DNA of 64,000 nt from Trichosporon coremiiforme (taxonomy: Eukaryota > Basidiomycota > Tremellomycetes > Trichosporonales > Trichosporonaceae), in contig BCJJ01000007.1 in assembly GCA_039545355.1 (NCBI GenBank), positions 62,001-126,000 of the forward strand, in the 5' to 3' direction. Of this stretch, positions 3,054 to 5,624 are shown in pieces; within the stretch, counting starts at the first letter, position 1; every line of letters begins with the position of its first letter. The notes below the pieces were generated by a model that was given only the letters and a program-made list of their open reading frames with translations, did not search any database and was not told the origin of the DNA. The translations under genes and the position numbers were made by a program.

Positions 3054-3260
3054 ATGAGGCTCTTCGCCATTGCTGTCGCTCTCTTTGCCAGTATCGGACT
3101 TGTGGCTGCTGAACCCTTAAAGCCGTCTCATGCGTATGTACAAGGCGTCCCCGAAAGCTGATGATCAGGAAGGATCCGTAGTGGGGCCAGAAGCATTGGG
3201 CTGAGTGCTCCTAAAAGCGCCACCGTATTGTTGAGGTTGTTCATGCTTGGCGATGGACTC
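3054..3260 (+). pseudogene. Broken WC-x6-C peptide precursor (locus A)
   Basis: Exon 1 (3054-3133) encodes a clean signal peptide, MRLFAIAVALFASIGLVAA, followed by EPLKPSHA, and ends in phase 2. The intron at 3134-3168 (GTATGT...CTGAT...CAG) is 35 nt. Exon 2 aligns codon for codon with the last repeat exon of the intact gene at 4445. However, the Tyr codon before the Trp is TAG (3179-3181), the first core Cys is Gly (GGC), a TAA follows the second Cys, and the native stop is lost (TGG). The reading therefore ends as ...SHAKDP after about 30 residues. The homology continues past the stops (KR...VEVV-A), which shows decay of a once-functional copy rather than a short real gene. Confidence 0.7.
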
Positions 3261-3563
3261 TACCTTAGCCATCAGTCATGATCTACGCATAAATAGCCAG
3301 TTTATGCTTCTCAAAGCGCAGCCTCGCAGTTTGCGGTGGCCAGCTGACGTCCGCGCTACGCTGAGGTAGTGCGAACGTTTGCCCAAGCAAATAGTCTCTC
3401 TGCTGTCCGTGAAAGAGCGACACGGATTGGTCAGCGTGCCGCACAGTAAGCAGCACTTCAAGACAGCCCCAAGAATTCTAGAATATCATGGTCACACTGT
3501 GCAGGAGACAGCTATCAATTCCGAGACGTCCCGGGTCAACAGCAACAAGGCTGACCTATTGCC

Positions 3564-3570
3564 ATACAAA
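3564..3570 (+). promoter_or_regulatory. Degenerate TATA box of peptide locus B
   Basis: ATACAAA sits 83 bp before the position homologous to the start codon, where the intact paralogs have CATATAAA or CATATAAG. Confidence 0.35.
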
Positions 3571-3647
3571 ATGGTAGAATCATACAAGCTCCTCCACAGT
3601 TCTTACCCTCCTCTTTACCTGTCTGAGCCATCGCCATCCAAGGAGTC

Positions 3648-3844
3648 ATCCAACTCTTCACCACTGTCATTGCTCTCCTCGTCACCGGTGGGCTTGCGGC
3701 AGCAGCTCCTGCCAAGAGTGATCAGGGGTAGATGTAGAGCGCCACTGGCAGCTGACTTAAAGCCAAGATGTAAAGTGGTGCAGGCACAACTGGGCCAAAT
3801 GTCATCGGAAGTCTGAGGAAGGGGATGGGGCTCCCGACGCCTAA
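3648..3844 (+). pseudogene. WC-x6-C peptide precursor with lost start codon (locus B)
   Basis: From 3648 the frame reads IQLFTTVIALLVTGGLAA, which aligns residue by residue with the signal peptide MKLLAVAVALFATVGFVAA of the gene at 4445, except that ATG has become ATC. An in-frame TGA at 3624 rules out an upstream start. Exon 1 ends at 3727 in phase 2. The intron 3728-3762 (GTAGAT...CTGAC...AAG) is 35 nt, the same length as intron 1 of the 4445 gene. Exon 2 (3763-3844) encodes QDVKWCRHNWAKCHRKS, then an acidic/Gly tail and TAA. The core keeps W-C-x6-C, but the basic site HRKR has become HRKS, so Kex2 cleavage after it would be lost. It is either a recent pseudogene, a non-AUG start, or a base error at 3650. 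Confidence 0.62.
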
Positions 3845-4359
3845 TGCCCAGCAATGTCGTAGTACTGTGACTAATTCACCGAATGCTTGGCCATGCTTCC
3901 ATACGGAAGCATTGCATTTCGAGACCTTACAGTAGGAGAGTCAATCTTTACTGCCCAGGAGGCTGCACGAGTGCGGACGGGTGGAGCAGCGGACGGTGGT
4001 CCGCCTCAACAGGAATCAACTTCTTGAGCGCAGGGATACGACATTACTGTCTTGTCTCACATTGCGTAAGCTGCGGCTAGCAGCTGAACCGCTGACCCGG
4101 CGCGAGCCTAACATTGACGATGATCATGGGGCAGTCACGTCTTCTGATGCCTTCGATGGACCGACTTCATCCCGGTAACCACGCCGTACTGCCGGTGCGA
4201 CATCGACACTGGACACACTTGGACACCTCATTTGAATTGCTAGCCCCACTTGACCTTGTGGTCGTGCGAACGACTCGCGCGACGACCTGATCGGCGTTTC
4301 TGTCTAGCACATTTGTCTAGGTGCCGCGGCGACCCTGATCCTTGTCTCCCCGCGATGCA
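3845..4359. other. Intergenic between peptide loci B and C
   Basis: No gene or repeat is recognised. It ends in the promoter of the intact three-repeat peptide gene. Confidence 0.5.
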
Positions 4360-4365
4360 TATAAA
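4360..4365 (+). promoter_or_regulatory. TATA box of peptide gene C
   Basis: TATAAA within GCATATAAAG lies 85 bp upstream of the ATG at 4445. Confidence 0.6.
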
Positions 4366-4444
4366 GAACGCAAGACATTGCCGAGTTGTCTTCGATATCG
4401 CCTCTTACCCCTTTCTGTTTCACTCACTGTACCGCCTCGACACT

Positions 4445-4858
4445 ATGAAGCTCCTCGCCGTCGCTGTCGCTCTCTTCGCCACTGTCGGCTTCGTGGCTGC
4501 TACACCTGTTCCTCGCCTGCCGTAAGCGCTAAATCTCATCGCCTCCTAACGAACAGTGAAGAAGTCGAGGAGTGCAAGAACAACTGGGCCAACTGTCACC
4601 GAAAGCGCGCTTCAGGTGATGGTTCAGCGTAAGCACAAGATCTCCCCACCTCCTTCCAATGCTGATTGTCAGTGACGACCCCTACTGGTGCAAGAACAAC
4701 TGGGCCAATTGCCATCGCAAGCGCGGATACGGAGACGGGTCAGCGTAAGTATGGCATCGCATCACCGGCGGCTAATTTGTAGTGACGACCCCTACTGGTG
4801 CAAGAACAACTGGGCCAACTGCAAGCGCAACGAAGACGTTGAAGTCGTTGAGGCGTAA
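4445..4858 (+). CDS. Secreted precursor with three W-C-x6-C peptide repeats (locus C)
   Basis: Four exons: 4445-4521, 4557-4628, 4673-4744, 4783-4858. The introns are 35, 44 and 38 nt, all phase 2, with CTAAC/CTGAT/CTAAT branch sites. The product is 98 residues: a signal peptide (MKLLAVAVALFATVGFVAA), a short TPVPRLP linker, then three 24-residue repeats, one per exon. The repeats read EECKNNWANCHRKR, DDPYWCKNNWANCHRKR and DDPYWCKNNWANCKR, separated by -SGDGSA or -YGDGSA spacers. Basic HRKR or KR sites follow each core, as Kex2/furin-type proteases require. Secretion and Kex2 maturation into two or three cyclic (one-disulfide) peptides is inferred. The W-C-x6-C plan resembles ascomycete alpha-factor-like pheromones, but a Kex2-processed RiPP or effector precursor is equally possible. 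No known family is claimed. Confidence 0.8.
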
Positions 4859-5363
4859 CGCCCGTTGTAGTCTGTCCTACATGACCAATGCACGGATAAC
4901 TTTCATGGGAAGCGCCCACGCGGGCGCATAAGCAAGGCCACAGTGCTCCGCGCATGGACTTACTGACTTCTCCGGGCCGAAAAGGCCCTTATCTAGACAT
5001 TCCATCATGTGTCGATCACGATCCGTGCTGCACGGCTACTTCCAGCAGCGCTTAGAGCGTTATCGCAGCATGAGGCTTGTCCGCAAGCTCCGAACAGGGT
5101 GGTTTCAGCGGGCATCTCTCAATGTGCCCGCGATAGTGGTATTGTAGGGTCTTGCATCGGAGAACACGCCGCACACACGAACTCTAAACTCTCTGTAGAC
5201 CGAATTGAAGGAGAGAAGATGCAGCGTGGGTCGTCGCCAGAAATAGCCCGCTCCACTTGACCTCAAGCTCGCACGAGGCGGGGCACATGACTGGGCTGCT
5301 CGCTACCCGTGTTCTCCGGTCGACATCTGCCTCATCAAAGTTGCCCCACCAGACTTCGGTGCA
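4859..5363. other. Intergenic between peptide genes C and D
   Basis: No gene is seen. It contains the 3' region of gene C and the promoter of gene D. Confidence 0.5.
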
Positions 5364-5369
5364 TATAAG
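5364..5369 (+). promoter_or_regulatory. TATA box of peptide gene D
   Basis: TATAAG within GCATATAAGC lies 77 bp upstream of the ATG at 5441. Confidence 0.55.
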
Positions 5370-5440
5370 CAGACACTACAGCCCCTTGACTACCAGTCTC
5401 ACTTGCTGCAATCATCCAATCCCTTCGAAATTAAAGCAAC

Positions 5441-5624
5441 ATGAAGCTCGTTGCAGTCGCTGTCGCTTTCCTCGCCACTGCTGGATTTGTAGCTGCCTCG
5501 CCTGTCCCCTTGGAGTGAGCATCAGAAGAGCTATCCGCGACTGACCTGCAGCCCCGAGACGAAGTGGTGCATCTCGCACCCTCTGCTGTGTCGTCCTAAG
5601 CGCGATCAAGGCATTGGGGCTTAG
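5441..5624 (+). CDS. Secreted single-copy W-C-x6-C peptide precursor (locus D)
   Basis: Two exons, 5441-5514 and 5552-5624, are joined across a 37-nt phase-2 intron (GTGAGC...CTGAC...CAG). The product is 48 residues. The signal peptide MKLVAVAVAFLATAGFVAA is nearly identical to that of gene C, and exon 2 has the same size as one repeat exon. The mature part reads PETKWCISHPLLCRPKR then DQGIGA. Trp-Cys, six residues, Cys and a following PKR site are kept although every residue between the cysteines has changed, so the spacing rather than the loop sequence appears to be constrained. A secreted peptide released after the KR site is inferred. Confidence 0.74.

What the first reader, a model, noticed from the sequence alone, without database searches (positions are those of the whole stretch)
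3054..5624. Array of secreted W-C-x6-C peptide precursors that look like alpha-factor-type pheromone genes in a basidiomycete-like genome
Four neighbouring loci in the same orientation share a near-identical signal peptide, a phase-2 first intron of 35-37 nt, and a Trp-Cys-six residues-Cys core flanked by basic HRKR/PKR sites. The plan (signal, repeats, Kex2 sites, W-C-x6-C) is known from ascomycete alpha-factor-like pheromones, whereas basidiomycete mating pheromones are farnesylated CaaX peptides. The array may therefore encode an undescribed peptide signalling, RiPP or effector system. Directly seen: sequence, introns, motifs. Inferred: secretion, Kex2 cleavage, cyclisation, role.
Basis: partly seen in the sequence, partly recalled or inferred. 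Interest (0 to 1): 0.92.

Follow-up and report, generated by a model that had tools for sequence, protein, structure and literature searches.

The report
Array of looped secreted fungal peptides
A Trichosporon yeast carries a small cluster of genes that appear to make secreted, disulfide-looped peptides laid out like the mating pheromones of a different fungal phylum; two copies look intact and two look dead, and since the fungus also has ordinary mating pheromone genes, these peptides probably do another job that is still untested.

Summary
The array is real. The genome is a hybrid Trichosporon (42 Mb; fits T. coremiiforme). Of the four loci, two look intact: B (4445-4858; 98 aa, three CKNNWANC repeats, one per exon) and D (5441-5624; 48 aa, WCISHPLLC). 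A (3054) has stops and lost its first Cys; A2 (3648) lacks the ATG and its Kex2 site. A probable relic lies at 7534, and a frame-broken relative at the matching place on the other subgenome (C21:32633). T. asahii A1Q2_02559 differs from B at 1 of the last 48 residues but at 11 of the first 21. I read B and D as secreted Kex2-processed precursors releasing C-x6-C ring peptides. They are not ascomycete alpha-pheromones by sequence: the consensus Gly and final Trp are absent. No STE2 or UstYa was found, though without a positive control; two STE3 genes, each with a CaaX pheromone gene about 5 kb away, lie on other contigs. An alpha-pheromone-like precursor of Trichosporon oleaginosus was published in 2019, so the kind is known; this family, with one repeat per exon and fast turnover, was not found in print by my searches. 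Function is inferred only.

The parts
4445..4858 (+). Locus B, intact precursor gene: exons 4445-4521, 4557-4628, 4673-4744, 4783-4858; introns of 35, 44 and 38 nt; 98 aa with three CKNNWANC repeats
   Evidence: Spliced translation without stops; homologue in T. asahii, E 3.3e-45, 74% identity
4673..4744 (+). One repeat cassette of B as a 72-nt exon between two phase-2 introns; 4557-4628 is the other 72-nt cassette, and 4783-4858 carries the third repeat plus the acidic tail
   Evidence: between cores 1 and 2 with HRKR (12 codons) 4 synonymous and 0 non-synonymous differences
5441..5624 (+). Locus D, intact single-repeat precursor: exons 5441-5514 and 5552-5624, intron 37 nt; 48 aa with WCISHPLLC-RPKR
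   Evidence: Spliced translation; own-genome search with D finds D itself and B's signal peptide only; no homologue in the protein database search
3054..3220 (+). Locus A, probable pseudogene: open signal peptide (3054-3133), intron 3134-3168, then DP*WGQKHWAECS*KR
3648..3844 (+). Locus A2, decayed: signal-peptide-like frame that begins with ATC, intron 3728-3762, then WCRHNWAKC-HRKS
   Evidence: its first 21 residues match T. asahii P0001 at 62% and B at 38%
7534..7679 (+). Locus F, probable relic: signal-peptide-like start MKFLAVIALL and ACRQDPNNC in another frame, no KR
   Evidence: about the same relative position as the C21:32633 relative on the other subgenome
4360..4364 (+). TATA box 85 bases upstream of the ATG of B (A: 2973, 81 bases; D: 5364, 77 bases)
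   Evidence: 3 of the 5 TATA[AT] matches in 2501-8000

Best explanation
Loci B and D are precursors of secreted Kex2-processed peptides. The signal peptide sends the precursor into the secretory pathway, Kex2 cuts after HRKR, RPKR and KR, a Kex1-type carboxypeptidase trims the basic residues, and the two cysteines close an eight-residue disulfide ring (C-KNNWAN-C or C-ISHPLL-C). The free peptides probably act outside the cell as a signal between cells of the same species, through an unidentified receptor that is not Ste2-like, in a role other than classical mating. Shown: gene structure, repeats, conservation of the repeats, decayed copies. Inferred: secretion, cleavage, ring closure, signalling role.
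For: Intact spliced frames of B and D. B and T. asahii A1Q2_02559 differ at 11 of the first 21 residues but at 1 of the last 48 (Fisher p 2e-6). Repeat cores of B differ only by synonymous changes. Two Kex2-type P-domain matches (PF01483) and two DPPIV_N matches, the domain of Ste13-type proteases, lie in the genome. TATA boxes lie 77-85 bases upstream of A, B and D. [quoted passage not shown]
Against: No transcript or peptide data were available. No STE13-type XA or XP dipeptide follows the Kex2 sites of B (AS, GY and NE follow). Beyond the TATA box the upstream 95 bases of B do not align with those of A or D above shuffles. Copies die and diverge fast, which suits an effector as well as a signal. 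Only one named species beyond this genome was found to hold a homologue, and D has none.
Confidence: 0.5

Rival explanations
1. Secreted effector or antagonistic peptides: the disulfide-ring peptides act on competing microbes or on a host rather than on the fungus itself.
For: Tandem array with decayed copies, unlike core in D, different content of the two matching subgenome intervals (5,056 against 10,287 bases) and a Tc1-type transposase-like frame nearby: a common picture for fast-turnover secreted peptides.
Against: The repeats of B are almost unchanged in T. asahii (1 of the last 48 residues), which argues against an arms race for that gene; several identical copies per precursor are more typical of signals (general knowledge).
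Confidence: 0.27
2. Cell-surface or wall peptide of the Rep1 repellent type, working by assembly on hyphae.
For: Rep1 of Ustilago maydis is a Kex2-processed precursor of a basidiomycete without a STE13 signature (PMC6339444 passages), as here.
Against: Short, charged, hydrophilic repeats, three in B and one in D; Rep1 peptides are, as I recall, longer, more numerous and amphipathic.
Confidence: 0.08
3. A true second mating pheromone, the functional counterpart of ascomycete alpha-factor.
For: C-x6-C ring, Kex2 sites and repeats as in WCYRIGEPCW of Trichoderma reesei (PMC3068285 passages).
Against: CaaX pheromone genes lie about 5 kb from each of the two STE3 genes (C11:829520-830446 with C11:835121; C23:648011-648976 with C23:653985), on other contigs than this array; no STE2 match (no control rang); the Gly three residues before the second Cys and the final Trp are absent; no ACAAAG element within 800 bases upstream of A, B or D, while both CaaX genes have one near -380 (that this is a pheromone response element is recalled, and two genes are too few to weigh much).
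Confidence: 0.07
4. RiPP precursor of the ustiloxin (dikaritin) type, cyclised by UstYa (DUF3328) proteins.
For: Kex2-flanked repeats are the precursor plan of that class (PMC7329392 passages).
Against: 0 matches to PF11807 in the whole genome (no control rang); two Cys per repeat allow a simpler ring.
Confidence: 0.03

Closest known systems
KEX2-processed repeat proteins (KEPs), Le Marquer et al. 2019 (PMC6339444) and the 2020 survey PMC7329392
   Same: Signal peptide, near-identical repeats separated by Kex2 sites, short precursor
   Different: B has one repeat per phase-2 exon; D and A2 have a single repeat, so they would not pass the three-repeat minimum of the 2019 survey
Trichosporon (Cutaneotrichosporon) oleaginosus KEP with QSWGGCGGRGTPCW (PMC6339444)
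   Same: Same order of basidiomycetes, C-x6-C, Kex2 sites, in a species with an a-type pheromone gene
   Different: That peptide keeps the G-x-x-C-W of ascomycete alpha-pheromones and has STE13 sites; B and D have neither. A repeat query of it found nothing in this genome nor in the protein database, but its spacer was made up and no positive control was at hand
Ascomycete alpha-type pheromone precursors (for example PPG1 of Trichoderma reesei, WCYRIGEPCW)
   Same: Layout, W-C-x6-C spacing, Kex2 sites
   Different: No Gly at the third position before the second Cys, no Trp after it, no STE2 found (no control rang)
Basidiomycete CaaX mating pheromones
   Same: Also encoded in this genome, about 5 kb from each STE3
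   Different: CaaX end, no signal peptide, no Kex2 repeats; on contigs C11 and C23, not C7

Membership tests
KEP (Kex2-processed repeat protein) | N-terminal ER signal peptide | tested here: inconclusive
   Hydrophobic starts ending in small residues, read from sequence and by a hydropathy filter; no signal-peptide predictor was run
KEP (Kex2-processed repeat protein) | At least three near-identical repeats separated by Kex2 sites | tested here: met
   B: three CKNNWANC repeats with HRKR, HRKR and KR. D and A2 have one repeat each and do not meet it
KEP (Kex2-processed repeat protein) | Cleavage by Kex2 in the secretory pathway | not testable with these tools
   Two P_proprotein (Kex2-type) matches lie in the genome; cleavage itself needs experiment
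Ascomycete alpha-type pheromone | Trp-Cys, six residues, Cys | tested here: met
   D, A2 and 2 of 3 repeats of B; the first repeat of B has Glu-Cys
Ascomycete alpha-type pheromone | Gly before the second Cys (G-x-x-C) and a final Trp | tested here: not met
   KNNWANC-H/K and ISHPLLC-R read from sequence, against WCYRIGEPCW in PMC3068285 (the consensus is printed there as WCXXGXXCW, one residue shorter between the Cys than that peptide)
Ascomycete alpha-type pheromone | Ste2-type receptor in the species | tested here: inconclusive
   PF02116: 0 matches in the genome, but nothing rang in the 14 control genomes; STE3 was found by the same method, one of the two genes in three exons
Ascomycete alpha-type pheromone | STE13 dipeptides (XA or XP) after the Kex2 site | tested here: not met
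   AS and GY follow the two HRKR sites of B and NE follows the last KR
Dikaritin (UstYa) RiPP | UstYa/DUF3328 gene near the precursor | tested here: inconclusive
   PF11807: 0 matches in the genome at E <= 1, but no control rang

The most novel reading that the evidence does not exclude
Trichosporonales keep a second peptide-signalling channel beside CaaX/STE3 mating: a fast-evolving family of disulfide-ring octapeptides, built one repeat per exon, read by a receptor that is not Ste2. The C-x6-C ring shared with the T. oleaginosus KEP and with ascomycete alpha-factors would then be either a shared ancestral hormone plan or a convergence.
Probability: 0.3. Interest if true: 0.8.

Novelty: new variant of a known kind. 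Interest (0 to 1): 0.5.

Why it matters
Basidiomycetes are known to signal for mating with lipid-tailed CaaX peptides. A conserved Kex2-type ring peptide in a genus that includes an opportunistic yeast of people would give a concrete, testable ligand for the open question of what alpha-pheromone-like KEPs do outside Ascomycota. The annotation described in PMC6642101 discarded genes under 100 aa (passage), which would drop both B (98 aa) and D (48 aa), so such genes can be missed by design.

Tried and rejected
Wider family in the own genome: B as query gives 7 exon matches, all on contig C7 (6 between window 3054 and 4855, 1 at 5441); D gives 3, all in the array; the two pieces of the C21 relative find only themselves. 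I first wrote in my notes that the matching interval on C21 lacks the array altogether, from blastn and tblastn. A finer alignment showed a signal-peptide match there, score 44 against a maximum of 31 in 30 shuffles, with a C-x6-C frame beside it, so that claim was dropped (note). The visible 42-nt intron does not join the two C21 pieces in frame (worked out by hand from the letters), so I call it frame-broken. A copy near 6640-6905 (TATA box, acidic tail) was considered and dropped: no alignment above shuffles. No Pfam family at E <= 1 for B, D or P0001; nothing meaningful among solved structures (3 matches, best E 0.29). D and the T. oleaginosus repeat query found no homologue in the protein database. 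No structure was predicted: too few relatives. Print searches: 'KNNWANC', 'A1Q2_02559' or 'A1Q1_02559' in 0 papers; Trichosporon with Kex2 and secreted peptide in 1 paper, PMC6339444. Supplementary tables of PMC6339444 and PMC7329392 were out of reach, so the T. asahii protein may be listed there. PMC13340095 (4 passages) and PMC12820176 (0 of 5 terms found) held nothing on this; PMC9769878 showed one reference-list passage.

Full report
What was checked. The window is G000:C7:62001-126000 of a genome of 42.04 Mb in 134 contigs. B (4445-4858) has four exons and codes for 98 aa without a stop; its introns are 35, 44 and 38 nt. D (5441-5624) has two exons, a 37-nt intron and 48 aa. A (3054) keeps an open signal peptide and a 35-nt intron, but the second exon reads DP*WGQKHWAECS*KR. 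A2 (3648) keeps a 35-nt intron and WCRHNWAKC, but begins with ATC where the others have ATG, and its basic site reads HRKS. So two of four look intact and two look dead; an assembly error in A2 cannot be excluded.

More than chance. W-C-x6-C occurs 6 times in the six frames of 64 kb; 4 of the 6 start between 3776 and 5565 on one strand. Over the first 63 bases B matches A and D at 79%, and A2 at 60%. Local DNA alignment of B's signal-peptide exon gives z 22.3 for A, 6.6 for A2 and 21.3 for D, all above the best of 200 shuffles. Its repeat exon gives z 14.5 for A2; for A z is 5.0, but the score (28) only equals the best shuffle; for D there is no match (z 0.7). The 95 bases upstream of B align with none of the others above shuffles. 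TATA boxes sit 81, 85 and 77 bases upstream of A, B and D.

Constraint. The best homologue of B among about 5.8 billion proteins is P0001, A1Q2_02559 of Trichosporon asahii CBS 8904, E 3.3e-45 and 74% identity; 4 of 89 candidates passed E <= 10, the other three being fragments without a name. B and P0001 differ at 11 of the first 21 residues and at 1 of the last 48 (p 2e-6). Cores 1 and 2 of B with their HRKR differ by 4 synonymous and 0 non-synonymous changes over 12 codons; the other two core pairs, over 8 codons, differ by 1 synonymous change each. This fits selection on the repeats at protein level while the signal peptide drifts. The numbers are small, and repeats may also have been homogenised.

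Which organism. An SPX-RING gene of the window has a second copy on contig C21 at 91% protein identity. The genome holds two STE3 genes (C11:829520-830446 in one open frame, C23:648011-648976 in three exons). About 5 kb from each lies a CaaX pheromone gene: MAYTNEPVNQENGSVRTDGYTGCVIA (C11:835121) and MAYKNEPVNQEIPGTGSGGFQHGCIII (C23:653985); I picked these two by their common start from 4 short CaaX-ended frames printed over 2 x 30 kb. The flanks of the two STE3 loci align at 81-82%, but no blastn match covers the STE3 genes themselves, as expected for two MAT alleles. That fits T. coremiiforme JCM 2938 (A1, A2) and not T. ovoides (A1, A1); the hybrid Cutaneotrichosporon mucoides also has two alleles (PMC6730849, passages), but B's best hit is in Trichosporon. 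A protein difference of 9% in one gene pair is nearer to the 7% given for T. coremiiforme than to the 17% for T. ovoides (PMC6642101, Introduction; other passages). The species name is an inference.

The other subgenome. The flanks of the array align with C21 (window -2250 with C21 27956; window 8038 with C21 33013). The interval is 10,287 bases on C7 and 5,056 on C21; none of B's or D's repeat exons scores above 30 shuffles there. But at C21:32633 there is a relative: signal peptide MKFLALAAFLAIGLIAAIPQA, and 125 bases from the ATG a C-x6-C (YCGQHPLRC), later DKR and an acidic tail. The two parts are in different frames, and the visible intron of 42 nt does not join them (read by hand), so it is probably broken. 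Window copy F (7534; ACRQDPNNC 110 bases from its ATG) stands at about the matching place. The family was therefore probably at this locus before the two subgenomes parted, and has since expanded on C7 or shrunk on C21.

Surroundings. Right of the array lie an alpha/beta hydrolase and the SPX-RING gene. Left of it is a Tc1-type transposase-like frame (DDE_3, E 2.1e-10; HTH_Tnp_Tc3_2, E 4.1e-7, the latter just under its curated cut-off; window 3-1082, - strand). GC in 1-8000 is 54-56% per 2 kb, against 56-67% in the rest. No STE2 and no UstYa was found in the genome; neither model rang in any control genome, so absence is not proved. Two Kex2-type P-domain matches and two DPPIV_N matches are present.

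Reading. The anatomy is that of a Kex2-processed peptide precursor. Predicted products of B are ...EECKNNWANC(H), ASGDGSADDPYWCKNNWANC(H) and GYGDGSADDPYWCKNNWANC, then a tail NEDVEVVEA; of D, a peptide ending in WCISHPLLC(RP). That the two cysteines of such a secreted peptide form a ring is an inference. An unusual point is that every repeat of B is its own exon in phase 2, two of them exactly 72 nt, so repeats could be gained or lost by exon duplication without shifting the frame. I saw no statement of this for KEPs in the passages that I read, but did not search for it as such.

Known or new. Le Marquer et al. 2019 (PMC6339444; outline, abstract and passages) report KEPs in Basidiomycota resembling alpha-pheromones, among them QSWGGCGGRGTPCW of T. 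oleaginosus, and suggest a signal other than mating. PMC7329392 (2020; passages) gives a mean of 1.00 KEP per strain in Tremellomycetes and a KEP type shared by Yarrowia and Cutaneotrichosporon that is annotated as fungal pheromone. The kind is thus known; this family was not found in print by my searches, supplements unread. It fails two sequence features of ascomycete alpha-pheromones (G-x-x-C-W; STE13 dipeptides), so it should not be filed as one, though it may work like one.

Verdict. A real, small, rapidly turning-over family of putative ring-peptide precursors in a hybrid Trichosporon, with a close homologue in T. asahii, of untested role.

Noticed in passing
window 3-1082 (- strand): Tc1/mariner-like transposase frame (DDE_3 and HTH_Tnp_Tc3_2), 360 aa open to the window's edge, holding three of the window's four N bases.
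   Followed up: partly
G000 contigs C7/C21 and C11/C23: The genome looks like a hybrid with two subgenomes; two STE3 genes, each with a CaaX pheromone gene about 5 kb away, lie on C11 and C23.
   Followed up: partly
P0001 (T. asahii A1Q2_02559): The deposited protein starts its first repeat as KHNWANC without the first Cys, while the unnamed fragment P0002 reads ECRHNWANCHRKR; the deposited gene model may be mis-spliced.
   Followed up: no
window 6641-6905: TATA box and a short acidic KR-containing open end that resembles the tail of B by eye, but without alignment above shuffles.
   Followed up: partly
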